From: Aquimarina sp. RZ0
GTDB taxonomy: Bacteria; Bacteroidota; Bacteroidia; Flavobacteriales; Flavobacteriaceae
DNA length: 64,000 bases
Reading direction: 5' to 3'
NCBI RefSeq assembly: GCF_008370685.1
Contig: NZ_VTZU01000004.1
Location: 124,001-188,000 of the forward strand
Positions 11,793 to 46,461 of the stretch are shown here, one piece after another. Both the position numbers and the translations under genes were made by a program. Under the pieces are notes generated by a model that did not search any database, had not been told where the DNA came from, and worked only from the letters and a program-made list of their open reading frames with translations. Position 1 is the stretch's first letter; each line of letters begins with the position of its first letter.

Positions 11793-13369
11793 TGAGTTAT
11801 TCAAAAAAATACTTACCATTATTTATAGGATTGGCGATGGGAGCAGGAGTTTTTTTAGGAAGTAAACTCGATTTTAGTAATCCATCTGCTAAACTATTTT
11901 CATATAATGCAAAAAAAGAAAAGCTAAACCGGCTCATAGATTATATAGATTATGAGTATGTAGATAATATCAATACAGATAGTATTGTAGATGTTACTGT
12001 CAATAGAATTCTGGAAAATCTAGATCCACATTCTGTATATATTCCGCCAGAAGAATTAGAAGGGATAACAGAGAGTATGCAGGGAGATTTTATTGGAATC
12101 GGTGTGAGCTATTATCAATATAGAGATACTATTTCTGTAATTAATACGATCAAAGGTGGTCCAAGTGAGCGTTCCGGAATTATGGCTGGAGATAGAATTC
12201 TTATGGCAGATAAGGATACACTTTTTGGGGAACGATTAAGGAGAGAAGAGCTGGCAAATAAGCTAAAGGGAGCGTTAAACAGTCAGGTTCAATTAAAGGT
12301 ATATAGAAAAGGAAAAGGAATATTTGATGTGGTGGTCAAGAGAGGTCGCGTACCCTTAAAAAGTGTGGATGCCAGTTATATGCTGAATGATAAGTATGGT
12401 TACATAAAAGTAAATCGATTTGCAGAAACGACCTATAGAGAATTTAAAACTGCGCTGGATTCCCTGTTGGATATGGGAACAAATACTTTAGTAATAGATC
12501 TCAGAGATAATGGAGGTGGTTTTATTGCTCCTGCATTAAAAATGGCTGATGAATTTTTAAAGGATGATTCCCTCATTATGTTTACTAAAAATAAAAAGGG
12601 TGCTATCGAAAATAATTATGCTACCCGTAATGGAAGTTTTGAAGAGGGGAAGGTATATGTTTTAATTAATGAAAATTCTGCTTCTGCCAGCGAAATTTTT
12701 GCCGGAGCAATACAAGATAATGATAGGGGAACTATTGTTGGAAGGCGATCTTATGGTAAAGGGTTAGTACAAAGAGAAATGTCTCTTGGAGATGGTAGTG
12801 CCATCAGACTTACCATTTCCAGATATTATACCCCAACGGGTCGTTCTATCCAAAAATCTTATAGTAATGGGAATAAGGAATATTTTAATGAATATCTACA
12901 GCGTTATAAGAATGGAGAACTACAAAATGCTGATAGTATACAAGTAGCGGATTCATTAAAATTCAGAACTCCAGGAGGCAAAATTGTGTATGGTGGGGGA
13001 GGTATAATACCAGATATTTTTGTAAGTAAGGATACTACCAGAGTAGGAGAAACACTTAATTATTTGCTTAGATCAGGGCGTATGGGCGGATATGTTTTTG
13101 AAGAGTTAGATAAAAAGAGAGCGTTTTATAATAATCTGTCTAAAGAGCAATTTAAAACAGAAATAAATATAGATGAAGATTTTGCTGATGGTTTTTTGAT
13201 GTATGCCAAGAAAGGAGGTATTGATATTATTCTGGATGATTACAGAGACCAGTTAAAAAAATATTTGAAAGCTATCATGGCGCAACAGTTATTTGGAACT
13301 AGTGCTTTTGAAAAGATTATAAATGAGGATGATAAGATGATTCAGAAAGTCTTGTCGTTATCTCAATAA
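11792..13369 (+). CDS. C-terminal processing peptidase, S41 family (CtpA-type)
   Basis: A 525-residue protease with an N-terminal membrane anchor (YLPLFIGLAMGAGVFLG). A PDZ domain lies around residues 85-165 (GIGVSYYQYRDTISVINTIK, SGIMAGDRILMADKDT), then the S41 domain (DLRDNGGGFIAPALKMADEF). The serine motif SASASEIFAGAIQD is at 296-309 and the catalytic lysine in SYGKGLVQ is Lys323. The sequence YYTPTGRSIQKSY is typical of the family. It degrades or trims proteins at their C-terminus in the periplasm. A tail of about 120 residues after the core is usual for Bacteroidota members. Confidence 0.95.
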   Translation: MSYSKKYLPLFIGLAMGAGVFLGSKLDFSNPSAKLFSYNAKKEKLNRLIDYIDYEYVDNINTDSIVDVTVNRILENLDPHSVYIPPEELEGITESMQGDFIGIGVSYYQYRDTISVINTIKGGPSERSGIMAGDRILMADKDTLFGERLRREELANKLKGALNSQVQLKVYRKGKGIFDVVVKRGRVPLKSVDASYMLNDKYGYIKVNRFAETTYREFKTALDSLLDMGTNTLVIDLRDNGGGFIAPALKMADEFLKDDSLIMFTKNKKGAIENNYATRNGSFEEGKVYVLINENSASASEIFAGAIQDNDRGTIVGRRSYGKGLVQREMSLGDGSAIRLTISRYYTPTGRSIQKSYSNGNKEYFNEYLQRYKNGELQNADSIQVADSLKFRTPGGKIVYGGGGIIPDIFVSKDTTRVGETLNYLLRSGRMGGYVFEELDKKRAFYNNLSKEQFKTEINIDEDFADGFLMYAKKGGIDIILDDYRDQLKKYLKAIMAQQLFGTSAFEKIINEDDKMIQKVLSLSQ

Positions 13370-41992: not shown

Positions 41993-42000
41993 TATCTTTG
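41993..42000 (+). promoter_or_regulatory. Promoter -7 element of mgtE
   Basis: TATCTTTG matches TAnnTTTG. It predicts transcription start near 42007, downstream of the first ATG of the frame (41998) and upstream of the ATG at 42037, which supports the latter as start. Confidence 0.5.
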
Positions 42001-42036
42001 TGGGCGTTTGCAAAGAAATCTATAAATAAGTATCCT

Positions 42037-43392
42037 ATGTCATTCGAGATTTCCAATGAACTTATTGATGAAGTAAAGCAATTTATACAAATTGAAGATG
42101 ATGCTCATTTGCAGGAAATGCTTAGTGAAATTCATTTTGCTGATATTGCAGAGATACTCGAAGAACTCAACTTACCCCAGGCAACATATTTAATAAAACT
42201 TTTAGATAGCGAAAAGACTTCAGAAGCCCTGATGGAGTTAGAAGATGATTTTCGTGAACGTATTCTGGAAAACCTTTCGATAAAGGAAATTGCAGAAGAA
42301 TTGGAGGAGATGGATACTGATGATGCTGCAGATATAGTAGCAGAACTTCCAGAAGTACGAGCAGAAAAAGTTATTGCTGAAATTGAAGATGAGAAATTAG
42401 CAGAAGATATTAAAGAATTGCTGAAGTATGAGGAAGATACGGCAGGTGGTTTAATGGCAAAAGAGTTGGTAAAGGTAAAAGAAACCTGGACGGTTGCCGG
42501 CTGTGTTAGGGAAATGCGTAGACAAGCAGAAAATGTTACCAGAGTACATTCTATATATGTAGTGGATAAAGAGGGAAGGCTGAAGGGAAGATTATCTCTT
42601 AAAGATTTATTGACTGCTACGGCAAAAACTCATATCAGTGAAGTATATATTCCTAAGGTAGATTTTGTGCGAGTAGATACAGAAGGTGAGGAGGTAGCGA
42701 GAATTATGCAAAAATATGATTTAGAAGCTATTCCCGTAATTGATGATAATGGTATTTTGGTAGGTCGTGTGACTATTGATGATATGGTAGACTTTATTAA
42801 AGATGAGGCCGAAAAAGATTATCAATTGGCTGCGGGTATTTCACAAGATGTAGAGGCAGATGATAATGTGTGGGAATTAACAAGAGCAAGGCTGCCCTGG
42901 CTTATACTTGGGCTCTTTGGAGGGCTGGGGAGTGTGTTTATTATGGAAGGTTTTGAGGAATTAATGACTGATCCTAAAAATAAAAGCCTCTTTTTTTATA
43001 CCCCTTTGATTGCTGCAATGGCAGGAAATGTAGGAGTTCAGTCTTCTGCGATTATTGTACAAGGCTTGGCAAATAATGTGGTAAAAGGAAGTCTCCTGAG
43101 TAGGTTGTTAAAAGAAATAAGCCTTAGTCTTATCAACGGTATTGCTTTGGCGCTACTCATTATTATTTTTGGTTTTATCATGAACTATGATATTTTCTTT
43201 AGTATAACCATAGCTGTTGCGCTTATGTGTGTTATTATAGTGGCAGCACTAATTGGAACATTTGTTCCGATAGTACTAGATAAAAGAGGTATTGATCCGG
43301 CAATTGCTACAGGACCTTTTATAACCACCAGTAATGATATTTTTGGAATTTTTTTATTTTTCTATATAGCAAAGTTGATTCTGGGTTTCTGA
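42037..43392 (+). CDS. mgtE: Magnesium transporter MgtE
   Basis: A 451-residue MgtE. The N-terminal helical domain (residues about 5-115; EMLSEIHFADIAEILEELNL, EEMDTDDAADIVAELP) acts with the CBS pair (SIYVVDKEGRLKGRLSLKDL, YDLEAIPVIDDNGILVGRVT) as a cytoplasmic Mg sensor. Five membrane helices follow, with the conserved AAMAGNVGVQSSAIIVQGLA and the pore-lining DPAIATGPFITTSNDIFGI. Start 42037 is preferred over 41998 because of the promoter position and because the extra 13 residues do not fit the family. In other organisms it is controlled by cytoplasmic Mg; no riboswitch is seen here. Confidence 0.95.
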   Translation: MSFEISNELIDEVKQFIQIEDDAHLQEMLSEIHFADIAEILEELNLPQATYLIKLLDSEKTSEALMELEDDFRERILENLSIKEIAEELEEMDTDDAADIVAELPEVRAEKVIAEIEDEKLAEDIKELLKYEEDTAGGLMAKELVKVKETWTVAGCVREMRRQAENVTRVHSIYVVDKEGRLKGRLSLKDLLTATAKTHISEVYIPKVDFVRVDTEGEEVARIMQKYDLEAIPVIDDNGILVGRVTIDDMVDFIKDEAEKDYQLAAGISQDVEADDNVWELTRARLPWLILGLFGGLGSVFIMEGFEELMTDPKNKSLFFYTPLIAAMAGNVGVQSSAIIVQGLANNVVKGSLLSRLLKEISLSLINGIALALLIIIFGFIMNYDIFFSITIAVALMCVIIVAALIGTFVPIVLDKRGIDPAIATGPFITTSNDIFGIFLFFYIAKLILGF

Positions 43393-43427
43393 GTACGGGT
43401 GAAAGAGAGAGGTATTTAGGGAAAACA

Positions 43428-43466
43428 CCGTCATACGATATTTGCAATTCCAAAATCATATGACGG
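43428..43466 (-). terminator. Hairpin after the cysteine-rich peptide gene
   Basis: CCGTCATA (43428-43435) and TATGACGG (43459-43466) form an 8-bp stem with a 23-nt loop, 10 bp beyond the peptide stop. On the minus strand it is followed by GTTTTCCC, a weak T run. It may end both the peptide gene and mgtE. Confidence 0.5.
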
Positions 43467-43475
43467 TAACAGGTG

Positions 43476-43667
43476 CTAAGAAGTCTGTAGGCAGGTATAA
43501 ATTTGCGGGCAAGCATGAATTGTATTACAGTAGGACGGACCAGTAACGGATCCACTACAAGAACAGCCGCATAAGGATAAGTCGTTTCCTCCAAGTCCCT
43601 TGATTTGACGTTGGCTTTCTTTGGTAAGAACCTTAATACCTTCAATGTTGAAAAAAATTGTTTTCAT
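43476..43667 (-). CDS. Candidate RiPP/bacteriocin-like precursor peptide
   Basis: A 63-residue peptide. Residues 1-27 look like a double-glycine leader: MKTIFFNIEGIKVLTKESQR, then QIKGLGG. The predicted core (28-63) is NDLSLCGCSCSGSVTGPSYC then NTIHACPQIYTCLQTS. It contains six cysteines, two Gly-rich turns and little charge. The leader resembles those of Bacteroidota GG-peptides and bacteriocin-like proteins (the LTKESQRQIKG pattern). No transporter, lanthionine enzyme or radical-SAM gene lies next to it, so it is an orphan here. A -7-like element (43695-43702) and a downstream hairpin support a real transcription unit. Antisense frames were rejected. Confidence 0.65.
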   Translation of the reverse strand: MKTIFFNIEGIKVLTKESQRQIKGLGGNDLSLCGCSCSGSVTGPSYCNTIHACPQIYTCLQTS

Positions 43668-43694
43668 GTGTTATTTGTTTTTAAGTTAGTAAGG

Positions 43695-43702
43695 TAAATA
43701 TA
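43695..43702 (-). promoter_or_regulatory. Promoter -7-like element of the peptide gene
   Basis: TATATTTA on the minus strand (TAnnTTTG with final A), 27 nt before the peptide start codon. Confidence 0.35.
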
Positions 43703-43795
43703 TATCAAACGTCCTTAGTCTATAGCAGTTTTAACGTTTTTTTATTTTCGTTTTTGCTACTTTCAAGGACTATAAAATCGGTAATTTGATCAGCT

Positions 43796-44188
43796 ATGGA
43801 AACAGAAATTTTTGAATCTCAAATTATAGTACCAGCATCTGCAATTGATGACATCAACCATGTTAATAATGTGCAATATTTACAATGGGTTCAAGATATT
43901 GCTAAAGAACATTGGGAAGAAAAAACATCTCAAAAAATGAGAGATACTTATGTGTGGGTAGTGTTGAGTCATTTTATAGAGTATTATCATCCGGCGTTTG
44001 AAGGGGATCAGATTACACTCCAGACCTGGATTGATCATTACCGCGGGGTGAAAAGTGAGCGGCATACAAAAATAATAAATACCTATACTAAGAAGGTAAT
44101 TGTTTCTGCAAAGACCTCTTGGTGTTTGCTCTATAAAGAAACGTTAAGACCTGCCAGGATTACTGATGAAATTGTTACCTTGTTTTGA
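43796..44188 (+). CDS. Acyl-CoA thioesterase, hotdog fold
   Basis: A 130-residue single hotdog-domain protein. The active-site Asp and following residues AIDDINHVNNVQYLQWVQDI with AKEHWEE match the 4HBT/YbgC group (D-x-x-x-H-V-x-N motif). It hydrolyses acyl-CoA thioesters, substrate unknown. It lies 17 bp before a cupin gene on the same strand and probably forms a two-gene transcript. Confidence 0.88.
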   Translation: METEIFESQIIVPASAIDDINHVNNVQYLQWVQDIAKEHWEEKTSQKMRDTYVWVVLSHFIEYYHPAFEGDQITLQTWIDHYRGVKSERHTKIINTYTKKVIVSAKTSWCLLYKETLRPARITDEIVTLF

Positions 44189-44205
44189 GATGTTTAAAAT
44201 AGTAT

Positions 44206-44571
44206 ATGAAAGCAATAAATATTCAAGAAAAGTTATCTAAATTTGATGCTCAGTGGCATCCTCATAGGATTGCTACCATAGATGATAATCAGGTATATCT
44301 AGCAAAAATATCAGGAGATTTTGTCTGGCACACACATGAAAAGGAAGATGAACTTTTTCAGGTTATAAAGGGCACACTATTTATGAAGTTTAGAGATAAA
44401 ACGGTAAAAGTTGAAGCTGGGGAACTTATTGTAGTGCCAAAAGGGATAGAGCACTGTCCTTCTGCAAAAGATGGAGAAGAGGTCCATCTTTTATTATTTG
44501 AAAAAGCAACTACCAAGCATACAGGAGAAACTAGTACTGAACGAACTGTTTCGCAGTATGTTGATATTTAA
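44206..44571 (+). CDS. Cupin-domain protein
   Basis: A 121-residue small cupin (DUF/YlbA-like). The first cupin motif HTHEKEDELFQVIKGTLFMK provides metal ligands H, H and E; the second motif is AGELIVVPKGIEHCPSAKDG with the third His. The metal site is therefore complete. Likely a metal-dependent small-molecule enzyme or binding protein; the substrate is unknown. It is probably co-transcribed with the thioesterase gene just upstream. Confidence 0.85.
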   Translation: MKAINIQEKLSKFDAQWHPHRIATIDDNQVYLAKISGDFVWHTHEKEDELFQVIKGTLFMKFRDKTVKVEAGELIVVPKGIEHCPSAKDGEEVHLLLFEKATTKHTGETSTERTVSQYVDI

Positions 44572-44685
44572 AAGGTTTTAAGTATGTTTTTTGTATAACT
44601 GTGTGTGGTGTTTAGTATTTTACTTGTCCCAGAGTTTAGATATGGGTAAATCAAGTTAAAAATTCTGAAAAGTAATCTTTTATAG

Positions 44686-44720
44686 TAAAAAATCCAGTAA
44701 GCAATAACCTACTGGATTTT
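44686..44720 (-). terminator. Terminator after the GH16 gene
   Basis: AAAATCCAGTA (44689-44699) and TACTGGATTTT (44710-44720) form an 11-bp stem with a 10-nt loop. On the minus strand it runs into a short T tract. Confidence 0.8.
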
Positions 44721-44763
44721 CAAACTATTTTACTATTAGTACTATATGAATATTCCTAAGTAT

Positions 44764-46461
44764 TTATTGTTTTACAAATCTCAGTGATTTACTTTCGGTA
44801 TCTCCTGTTAGTCTGACAAAATATATTCCAGCATTTAGATTCGCTATTTTTAATTGTCCGCTAAAATCAGAGTTGTTTATGGTTTGCTTTTGATGAACCT
44901 TACCTAGCATATCAATTATTTGGATAGAATTATATGTTGAACTATTTCCGAGAGAGATATTAAGAATATCTTTCGCAGGATTTGGATATAGCATTACTTT
45001 TCCATTGGCTAAGCTTTCTGGGGTAACGTCTGATCCAGATGCTTTAGCAGAAGAATAGAATTGAATATTCCATTTTTCGTTATTGCTATTGCTGTTGAAC
45101 CAGAATATTTGTGCATTAGCATTTGTTGCTCCATTGTGTCTATCCATTCCCAGGTTGCTACAATGCACTGGTTTAATCGAATAATTACCTCCGTTTTGTG
45201 CAATTTTCCATTTTCTGTTATTGCCACTAGAGCTAGTTCCAGTAGATACATTTGCATTGTTAGTACAGGCTGAATTATCTACCTGTAAATATCTTCCTGT
45301 ACCAGAATTTCTAATTGTGTATTCGTTGTTTCCTTGGTGTATGAATACCCATCTTTGATCATTATAATTACCTGGATTGATCATACGAGCATTATAATTA
45401 GCCCAAGAAGGAGCAAGTAAGCGTTGAGAATTCTGAGGGGAAGTGATGTAGTATGTTCCGTCTGAGATAATTTGATTACCGCTATTACCGCCGCCGCCAG
45501 AAGAAGCAACAGGTTTATAAACACGAATCCAATCTATGAGCATTACATTTTTTGCTGAGTTATTTAGATCATAAGATGGAGAAATAGGTCTTCCGTGATG
45601 ACTTTCTGTATCTATAATAATGAATAACTCCTTGGTAATTTGATTCTCCCACTGACTTTTGTTTAGAGGAGTGGAGGATACATTCGGGTTTGGATTTTGC
45701 AATATTGCCTGATTATAACTACCGTTTAAGTTATTTTTGTATCGCCCGTCAACAAAATGTTCTCCTTTTGATGTAGGGACTCCATCGATATAAAATGTAA
45801 TATCAGTAGGGCTTTTCCAGTAGCATCCAAAAGTATGAAATCCGTCTCTCCAATAAGGATTTTGAGCTAGACTTTGATTGGGATTAACTTTAAAAAACGT
45901 TTGATATGTATGATCGTTTCCTGATTTCCAGATATGAAAATTTGTGGACATTTGCTTACTGAAAAATTGATTTGTATCGCCACCATACACTTCTAGAATA
46001 TCAAGTTCTTGCCACCAGCCTGGATTGTTATTGTCTTTTTGACTCAGTAACCAGAAATTGGATGAATTTAATATATTAGATGCTTTAATTCTGGCTTCCA
46101 TGTAGACTGGGTACTTTATCTTGGTTTTAGAAGAGATAACACCGCAGTTTACTTTGCTTCCAGAACCCTGTGTTCCTCTTATTTCTAGAAATCCTCCAGA
46201 AACATTAGAGTTCCCGGTTACCCAATTGGTTTCTCCCGGACCAGGCCATCCCGGATCAGGCATGTAGTAATCTACCCATTTATTAGTAAAGTTAGCATTC
46301 CCTTTTCCATTATAATTGAAGTCGTCAGAAAAGTTGGATTGTAATTGCCATTGCTTACCTGATCCAGCGTTGGCAGGAATAGGAACTCCTGACCAATCTT
46401 GCCCAAAGGTAAAAAGACAGGTGCAAATTAAAAAAACACTTAACAAGTAATTATTTTTCAT
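44764..46461 (-). CDS. GH16 glycoside hydrolase with ricin-like lectin domain and T9SS sorting domain
   Basis: A 565-residue secreted enzyme. A signal peptide (residues 1-20, ending FTFG) is followed by a GH16 catalytic domain (about 25-320). The active-site motif ExDxxE is seen as QELDILEVYGG (Glu152, Asp154, Glu157), with nearby SSNFWLLSQKDNNNPGWW and FYIDGVPTSKGEHFVDGRY. The sequence most resembles agarase/porphyranase/carrageenase-type GH16. A GGGG linker leads to a CBM13/ricin-like lectin domain (about 330-470; SGTGRYLQVDNSAC, NGGNYSIKPVHCSN). A T9SS type A sorting domain ends the protein (VMLYPNPAKDILNISLGNSS). It probably cuts marine galactans at the cell surface. Confidence 0.9.
   Translation of the reverse strand: MKNNYLLSVFLICTCLFTFGQDWSGVPIPANAGSGKQWQLQSNFSDDFNYNGKGNANFTNKWVDYYMPDPGWPGPGETNWVTGNSNVSGGFLEIRGTQGSGSKVNCGVISSKTKIKYPVYMEARIKASNILNSSNFWLLSQKDNNNPGWWQELDILEVYGGDTNQFFSKQMSTNFHIWKSGNDHTYQTFFKVNPNQSLAQNPYWRDGFHTFGCYWKSPTDITFYIDGVPTSKGEHFVDGRYKNNLNGSYNQAILQNPNPNVSSTPLNKSQWENQITKELFIIIDTESHHGRPISPSYDLNNSAKNVMLIDWIRVYKPVASSGGGGNSGNQIISDGTYYITSPQNSQRLLAPSWANYNARMINPGNYNDQRWVFIHQGNNEYTIRNSGTGRYLQVDNSACTNNANVSTGTSSSGNNRKWKIAQNGGNYSIKPVHCSNLGMDRHNGATNANAQIFWFNSNSNNEKWNIQFYSSAKASGSDVTPESLANGKVMLYPNPAKDILNISLGNSSTYNSIQIIDMLGKVHQKQTINNSDFSGQLKIANLNAGIYFVRLTGDTESKSLRFVKQ

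What the first reader, a model, noticed from the sequence alone, without database searches (positions are those of the whole stretch)
43476..43667. Orphan double-glycine, six-cysteine peptide: candidate RiPP or bacteriocin precursor
The leader (residues 1-27, ending KGLGG) and a 36-residue core with six Cys and almost no charge fit secreted GG-leader peptides exported by C39-peptidase transporters. It has its own -7-like element and a 3' hairpin. No modifying enzyme is adjacent, so it may rely on enzymes elsewhere, or form disulphides only. Orphan GG-peptides are poorly characterised in Flavobacteria.
Basis: partly seen in the sequence, partly recalled or inferred. Interest (0 to 1): 0.68.

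Follow-up and report, generated by a model that had tools for sequence, protein, structure and literature searches.

The report
Conserved secreted six-cysteine flavobacterial peptide
This small gene encodes a short cysteine-rich peptide, with much the same core in many flavobacteria, that is probably exported and locked by three disulphide bonds made by an enzyme encoded elsewhere in the genome; what it does outside the cell is still unknown.

Summary
The ORF is real (minus strand, 63 aa) and conserved. Congeners are Aquimarina. An intact orthologue is in 20 of 66 congeneric genomes, a broken one in one more; relatives occur in Flavobacterium, Kordia, Tenacibaculum, Lacinutrix, Dokdonia and Chryseobacterium. 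The spacing CxCxCx9Cx5Cx5C is exact in 20 of 20 orthologues and 78 of 79 wider loci. A -7-like element (20 of 20 orthologues) and a strong 3' hairpin support it. Neither C39 exporter nor LanB lies near it in 83 distinct loci. Genomes with the peptide carry a VKOR protein, in the cases examined a C39-like/VKOR/DsbA-type fusion, elsewhere: 50 of 50 non-Aquimarina genomes tested and all 21 Aquimarina, against 62 of 397 in a family sample. That fusion often adjoins a C39 exporter, HlyD and arrays of leader peptides with even Cys counts (77 even, 6 odd). Best reading: a leader-guided, disulphide-stapled secreted peptide made in trans. The VKOR link rests on co-occurrence and neighbourhood, not biochemistry; the target is unknown. 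Closest known kind: bacteroidetocin-type peptides; this is a distinct variant.

The parts
43476..43667 (-). 63-aa precursor peptide gene
   Evidence: relatives
43593..43667 (-). leader, residues 1-25 (M..IKGL), C39-type pattern L14, Q19, I22, G24, with Leu at -1
   Evidence: alignment register; the C39 consensus itself is recalled
43479..43592 (-). predicted mature core, residues 26-63, six Cys (C33, C35, C37, C47, C53, C59)
   Evidence: AlphaFold pLDDT 87-88 over residues 31-50, whole-model mean 76.3, pTM 0.40
43695..43702 (-). -7 promoter-like element TATATTTA, 27 nt before the ATG
   Evidence: TAnnTTT[G/A] in 20 of 20 orthologues against a shuffle mean of 2.4
43426..43468 (-). 3' hairpin, probable terminator between the convergent peptide and mgtE genes
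   Evidence: -22.2 kcal/mol, z -5.7. A strict hairpin-plus-T-tract scan scores 11 of 20 orthologues at 24 or more (0.00 of shuffles) but gives the window's own copy 0, probably because its T tract is short
41998..43392 (+). MgtE divalent cation transporter gene, convergent neighbour, no link in function inferred
   Evidence: Pfam MgtE; same neighbour in 18 of 21 Aquimarina loci
43796..44188 (+). thioesterase-family gene, divergent neighbour
   Evidence: Pfam Acyl-ACP_TE and 4HBT_2; cluster c5 in 14 of 21 loci

Best explanation
The gene encodes the precursor of a secreted, disulphide-stapled peptide. (1) It is transcribed as a single gene from its own promoter [inferred from conservation]. (2) The leader is recognised by the stand-alone C39-peptidase ABC exporter (G000:C113) with its HlyD partner, cut after G24-x25 and sent out [inferred from leader pattern and co-occurrence]. 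(3) The six Cys of the core are oxidised to three disulphides by a separate membrane enzyme (G000:C200:7538-9133) that joins a C39-like domain without the catalytic Cys, a VKOR domain and a DsbA-like thioredoxin domain; the dead C39-like domain probably holds the leader, so that oxidation is coupled to export [co-occurrence and domain make-up shown; leader binding inferred]. (4) Outside the cell it acts on a conserved partner; an antagonistic peptide with a conserved target is put slightly ahead of a signal [speculative].
For: Exact Cys spacing in 20 of 20 orthologues. VKOR proteins with open frames of 483-577 aa in 50 of 50 non-Aquimarina peptide genomes tested and VKOR in all 21 Aquimarina with the gene, but VKOR of any size in 62 of 397 Flavobacteriaceae sampled. 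The 12 Aquimarina without VKOR have no leader-family match; four of the ten of these searched for C39 do have C39 hits (G002, G003, G043, G060). Within the 128 C39-positive genomes of the family sample, leader-family hits occur in 19 of 57 with VKOR and 1 of 71 without. VKOR lies within 6 kb of a C39 exporter in 38 of the 50. Eight loci picked by VKOR position hold 31 leader peptides in 121 kb, against 17 in 1307 kb of control. Cys counts are even in 77 of 83. Six redox Cys are invariant in the 20 fusions aligned; the model of the own fusion matches DsbA/ScsC and the ComA C39 domain 3k8u.
Against: No VKOR or C39 gene is next to this gene: in 99 family stretches (83 distinct) none holds the C39 exporter and one (L163) a split VKOR-like pair. 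Co-occurrence can follow from shared ancestry; the Fisher tests ignore phylogeny. That the 50 VKOR proteins are all C39-like/VKOR/thioredoxin fusions was not checked one by one. The 62 of 397 includes three under the Pfam cut-off and some short proteins (190-201 aa). Residue -1 is Leu here and Gly in only 1 of 20 Aquimarina orthologues, unusual for a C39 site. Three of 22 family genomes with a leader-family hit lack VKOR: G093, G134 and G288 (the last hit has four stops). Seven of the eight loci picked by VKOR position come from genomes already known to hold a family hit, and 18 of the 31 peptides lie in one of them. The own exporter and three other Aquimarina exporters fetched (L185, L187, L188) have no VKOR beside them.
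Confidence: 0.66

Rival explanations
1. It is a thioether RiPP (lanthipeptide) precursor that uses the LanB/LanC/C39 cluster elsewhere in the same genome (G000:C197).
For: The own genome has Lant_dehydr_N/C and LANC_like proteins beside a C39 exporter.
Against: In 20 orthologues six Cys but no Ser/Thr are invariant; over 101 relatives T42 is fixed (partly by the search pattern), S31 is in 94 and T58 in 95. No NCBIfam lanthipeptide model reaches its cut-off for P0001 or the four relatives scanned. LanB was not searched genome-wide in the other peptide genomes, so co-occurrence with it is untested.
Confidence: 0.07
2. It is a radical-SAM-modified peptide of the TIGR04149 type.
For: A Chryseobacterium relative hits TIGR04149 at E 1.2e-4, below its cut-off (21.8 against 25 bits). 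A Radical_SAM protein lies about 3.5 kb from another leader peptide of the own genome (L182:12422-13309), with some likeness to spore photoproduct lyase.
Against: P0001 itself has no NCBIfam hit. Neighbours of family members were clustered but not scanned for radical SAM, so absence is untested. Even-Cys parity and the VKOR link fit disulphides better.
Confidence: 0.07
3. Same secretion and disulphides, but the product is a cell-to-cell signal or a surface/metal-binding factor and not an antagonistic peptide.
For: Core under stronger constraint than leader (pN/pS 0.27 against 0.43); one site per genus in most loci; no match to P0001 on the plasmids or phages searched.
Against: Bacteroidetocin regions also encode no obvious immunity protein, and those peptides are antibacterial (PMC6671954 passages). 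No receptor was looked for; near-saturated synonymous sites weaken pN/pS.
Confidence: 0.35
4. It is not secreted: a conserved ORF whose leader resemblance is incidental, for example a cytoplasmic metal-binding peptide.
For: CxCxC cluster; -1 Gly not conserved in Aquimarina.
Against: Leader pattern kept across genera, with Gly at -1 in 68 of 101 relatives; a C39 match in 50 of 50 non-Aquimarina peptide genomes tested.
Confidence: 0.08

Closest known systems
Bacteroidetocins (proposed class IIf bacteriocins, Coyne et al. 2019, PMC6671954; passages read)
   Same: Bacteroidota; small GG-leader peptide with Cys thought to be disulphide-bonded; [quoted passage not shown] a thiol oxidoreductase and a five-TM protein, deletion of either of which attenuates toxin activity
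   Different: Leader 15-16 aa, four Cys in A and B (at least two in the others), genes together; here the leader is about 25 aa, six Cys, the gene stands alone, and the proposed oxidase is one C39-like/VKOR/thioredoxin protein. No sequence comparison with bacteroidetocins was made
NCBIfam NF047798 'bacteriocin-like protein' (Chryseobacterium leader)
   Same: A peptide near a VKOR gene in a Chryseobacterium (L210) hits it at E 2.9e-9, over cut-off
   Different: P0001 does not hit it; the Chryseobacterium member of the P0001 family that was scanned is below cut-off (12.5 against 23.5 bits)
Bacterial VKOR/DsbA disulphide systems
   Same: VKOR by Pfam (E 1.8e-13) and a thioredoxin domain; invariant Cys pairs; DsbA-like fold
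   Different: Adds an N-terminal C39-like domain and sits with leader-peptide exporters and peptide arrays. No solved VKOR structure is among the 50 fold matches shown
C39 peptidase exporters such as ComA and PCAT1
   Same: The N-terminal domain of the proposed oxidase has the C39 fold (3k8u), and the genome has such exporters
   Different: No Cys is conserved in the C39-like part of the fusion

Membership tests
Double-glycine (C39/PCAT) substrate | hydrophobic leader pattern ending in GG/GA/GS (recalled) | tested here: inconclusive
   Pattern and G at -2 conserved; -1 is Leu here, and G, A or S in 6 of 20 Aquimarina orthologues
Double-glycine (C39/PCAT) substrate | C39 exporter encoded in the genome | tested here: met
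   17 of 17 searched Aquimarina with the gene
Double-glycine (C39/PCAT) substrate | cleavage and export by it | not testable with these tools
   needs MS and knockouts
Bacteroidetocin (class IIf) | leader of 15-16 aa | tested here: not met
   about 25 aa; definition from PMC6671954 passages
Bacteroidetocin (class IIf) | adjacent TM protein, thiol oxidoreductase and C39 ABC transporter | tested here: not met
   no C39 exporter or VKOR oxidase beside it; other oxidoreductases were not searched
Bacteroidetocin (class IIf) | antibacterial activity on Bacteroidetes | not testable with these tools
   no assay
Class I lanthipeptide | LanB/LanC in the cluster | tested here: not met
   the own LanB finds nothing in the 99 stretches or the window; LanC was not queried; a LanB/LanC cluster exists elsewhere in the genome
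Class I lanthipeptide | conserved Ser/Thr to pair with Cys | tested here: not met
   none invariant in 20 orthologues, three at 90% or more
TIGR04149 rSAM-modified RiPP | score over curated cut-off | tested here: not met
NF047798 bacteriocin-like protein | score over curated cut-off | tested here: not met

The most novel reading that the evidence does not exclude
Flavobacteria have a general leader-guided disulphide machine: a membrane oxidase in which a dead C39 domain captures GG-type leaders and a VKOR/DsbA pair installs disulphides before or during export through a partner C39 exporter and HlyD. It serves large, diverse arrays of even-Cys peptides and, in trans, this one strongly conserved peptide, kept as a stand-alone chromosomal gene across several genera, which points to a conserved extracellular role and not to an arms race.
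Probability: 0.45. Interest if true: 0.78.

Novelty: new variant of a known kind. Interest (0 to 1): 0.63.

Why it matters
It turns an isolated small ORF into a member of a widespread family that the searched libraries do not name, and proposes the enzyme that matures it although the genes are unlinked. If right, one knockout of the VKOR fusion would switch off a whole class of secreted flavobacterial peptides, and the fusion becomes a hook for finding disulphide-rich peptides that cluster-based mining may miss. The conserved core in Flavobacteriaceae and Chryseobacterium makes the question of its target directly testable with one synthetic peptide.

Tried and rejected
Pfam and NCBIfam gave nothing for P0001; PADLOC nothing for P0001 or the fusion; Rfam nothing at gathering scores in 42000-45000. 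The peptide model has no PDB match by fold and no credible one by sequence (best E 0.4). phmmer of the fusion against the PDB gave no credible hit; the fold search did. P0001 against plasmids and phages: no match at E 0.01. A loose terminator scan was uninformative (20 of 20 against 16.2 in shuffles) and was replaced by a stricter one. Linkage to VKOR, C39, HlyD or LanB was looked for in the family loci and not found, but for the split VKOR pair of L163 (one weak hit of the exporter in the window, at 1228-1719, is 26% identical and lies about 42 kb away). A lanthipeptide reading was set aside but not fully tested.

Selection in my own sets: the 101-sequence alignment came from a script that required the six-Cys pattern and G.[VA].GP, after a scan that required one of two core patterns, so its Cys and VTGP columns are fixed by construction; two sequences without a start were dropped. 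An unfiltered re-reading of the 79 matches gives the exact Cys spacing in 78 and VTGP in 77; the miss, L164, is a match that begins before a stop, and its ORF has the pattern. In the 20 orthologues, which were not chosen by Cys, the spacing is exact in 20 and VTGP in 18. For folding, 48 of the 101 were used. The 20 fusions were picked from those fetched; those whose frame my ORF listing started late (L204, L207, L209) were among those left out.

Literature: nine full-text searches of an open subset. The direct ones, VKOR with C39 and bacteriocin (0 papers), VKOR with RiPP and disulfide (2) and VKOR with bacteriocin (4), list nothing on such peptides; of the broader ones only the first 12-20 of up to 445 papers were listed. 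Most subscription papers are not held, so absence is weak evidence. Passages only were read of PMC6671954 (found through), PMC5524665 (a reference-list entry), PMC8939145 and PMC10352776; all other papers were seen as search listings.

Full report
The thing itself. The minus-strand ORF 43476-43667 encodes 63 residues. It lies alone between a convergent MgtE gene (41998-43392) and a divergent thioesterase-family gene (43796-44188), followed by a cupin gene; a ribosomal RNA adenine dimethylase gene precedes mgtE. The genome is a 7.0 Mb assembly; nearly all records that match its congeners' loci are titled Aquimarina.

Is it real. A search of 66 congeneric genomes gave 47 with some leader-type match at E <= 1 and 21 with a close match (E < 1e-8). 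In 20 of these 21 the gene is intact (G010 has two copies); in G051 the frame departs inside the core. The 20 intact sequences aligned have M1, L14, Q19, G24, C33, C35, C37, G39, V41, G43, P44, C47, C53 and C59 invariant and the spacing CxCxCx9Cx5Cx5C in 20 of 20. pN/pS is 0.43 in the leader and 0.27 in the core over 190 pairs, with synonymous sites near saturation. A TAnnTTT[G/A] element stands 24-34 nt before the ATG in 20 of 20, against 2.4 of 20 in shuffles; the pattern was set after seeing the sequences, and 4 of 20 have the strict TAnnTTTG. A hairpin follows the stop. So it is a gene under purifying selection.

The double glycine. In 101 family members the invariant Gly is G24 and the next column is Gly in 68, Gln 16, Ser 7, Ala 4, Lys 2, Glu 2, Leu 1, Met 1. 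This register puts L14 at -12, Q19 at -7 and I22 at -4, the C39 leader spacing as I recall it. In Aquimarina the -1 residue is Gln in 12 of 20, Ala 3, Ser 2, and Gly, Leu and Lys 1 each. The mature peptide is therefore more likely residues 26-63, with the cut after a non-canonical residue.

Spread and siting. A scan of genome contigs with the Aquimarina alignment found 155 relatives; 79 loci were kept: Aquimarina, Flavobacterium, Kordia, Tenacibaculum, Lacinutrix, Dokdonia and Chryseobacterium. Read without a Cys filter, 78 of the 79 matches have the exact spacing and 77 VTGP; the scan itself demanded one of two core patterns, so VTGP is partly built in. A profile of 48 family members hits 44 of 395 genomes of the order at E <= 1e-5, in 4 of 109 genera. 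The leader differs by genus more than the core. Within a genus the gene mostly keeps one site: mgtE in 18 of 21 Aquimarina loci, with three others at another shared site, and other recurring neighbours in Flavobacterium, Kordia, Tenacibaculum and Chryseobacterium. Of 99 family stretches (83 distinct, 16 fetched twice) none holds a match to the own C39 exporter, HlyD or LanB, and one (L163) holds a split VKOR-like pair. P0001 has no match on the plasmids or phages searched.

The likely machinery. The own genome has three C39-type ABC transporters: one with HlyD, standing alone on C113; one in a LanB/LanC cluster on C197; one with a weaker C39 match on C173. In two other Aquimarina (G042, G020) the C113-type exporter is preceded by a 526-532 aa protein with C39-like, VKOR and thioredoxin domains; in three others fetched (G013, G028, G010) and in the own genome it is not. 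The own copy, 531 aa, is at G000:C200:7538-9133; its C39 match is weak (E 0.015). In 20 aligned fusions the pairs C193/C201, C268/C271 and C381/C384 are invariant and no Cys is conserved in the C39-like part. The AlphaFold model of the own copy (mean pLDDT 82.5, pTM 0.58) matches DsbA/ScsC-type proteins and, at E 3.1e-4 and TM 0.67 to the target, the C39 domain of ComA.

Co-occurrence. VKOR is in 54 of 66 Aquimarina, and in all 21 with the gene. The 12 without it have no leader-type match; Fisher p 1e-8, or 6e-6 in the 58 genomes at least 90% complete. Ten of those 12 were searched for C39, and four have it (two short frames in G043). In the Flavobacteriaceae sample VKOR is in 62 of 397 (59 over the cut-off, a few short); 22 of the 397 have a leader-family hit and 19 of these have VKOR (p 3.7e-14). 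C39 alone does not explain it: of 128 C39-positive genomes 57 have VKOR; leader-family hits are in 19 of those 57 and in 1 of the other 71 (p 4e-7). Of the non-Aquimarina peptide genomes, 50 of 50 tested have VKOR and C39; in 38 of 50 the two lie within 6 kb. These tests ignore relatedness.

Neighbourhood. Around VKOR genes in other genera lie arrays of leader peptides. In 25 VKOR or C39 loci (344 kb) a leader pattern without a Cys requirement found 84 ORFs, 83 with at least three Cys: 4 Cys in 30, 6 in 41, 8 in 6, 5 in 5, 3 in 1; even 77, odd 6. Twelve of those 25 loci had been picked because a peptide hit lay near VKOR. The eight picked by VKOR position (seven from genomes already known to have a family hit) hold 31 in 121 kb, in 6 of 8, 18 of them in L209. 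The five C39-centred loci L184-L188 gave none with three or more Cys. The control, 79 family loci and the window without the family itself, gave 17 in 1307 kb. Array peptides are related to one another, so parity counts are not independent. The own genome has further leader peptides with Cys on C250, C221, C174, C168 and C187.

Mechanism. The best account is export by the stand-alone C39/HlyD pair and oxidation by the VKOR fusion, with the dead C39 domain as leader holder. Conservation, co-occurrence, neighbourhood, parity and domain make-up are shown; leader binding, the cleavage site, three disulphides and export are inferred; the target is a guess.

Comparison with the known. [quoted passage not shown] The present system may work in a similar way but fails the leader length and gene linkage, so it is not filed as a bacteroidetocin; it is called a new variant of that kind. 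The searches named under Tried and rejected listed no paper joining VKOR to such peptides.

Noticed in passing
G000:C197:1-13000 (L069): Class I lanthipeptide-type cluster in the same genome: C39-ABC exporter, LanB (Lant_dehydr_N and _C) and a LANC_like protein; a second LanC-like neighbour was not scanned.
   Followed up: partly
G000:C250, C221, C174, C168, C187 (L054, L055, L056, L182, L183): Further short peptides with the same kind of leader and several Cys, in unlike surroundings.
   Followed up: partly
L182:8756-8932 and 12422-13309: A Radical_SAM protein (some likeness to spore photoproduct lyase) lies about 3.5 kb from one of those peptides; a link is not claimed.
   Followed up: partly
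L202 (G384) and L209 (G482): Large arrays of leader peptides (20 and 18 by the strict pattern) around VKOR, transporter and HlyD-like genes.
   Followed up: partly
L184:3280-4554 and L186:7947-9230: Similar proteins are encoded just upstream of the VKOR fusion in two Aquimarina; the L184 one is DUF6734, the L186 one was not scanned.
   Followed up: no
L024 (G051): A broken copy of the gene at the conserved mgtE site, a sign of occasional loss.
   Followed up: no
43729-43735: A GTTAAAA element (minus strand) recurs upstream of most orthologues at the mgtE site but not of the three at the other site; it may belong to the divergent gene (by eye).
   Followed up: no
L163:10956-12405: In Chryseobacterium luteum a VKOR-like system split over two ORFs lies about 3 kb from a family member.
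   Followed up: no
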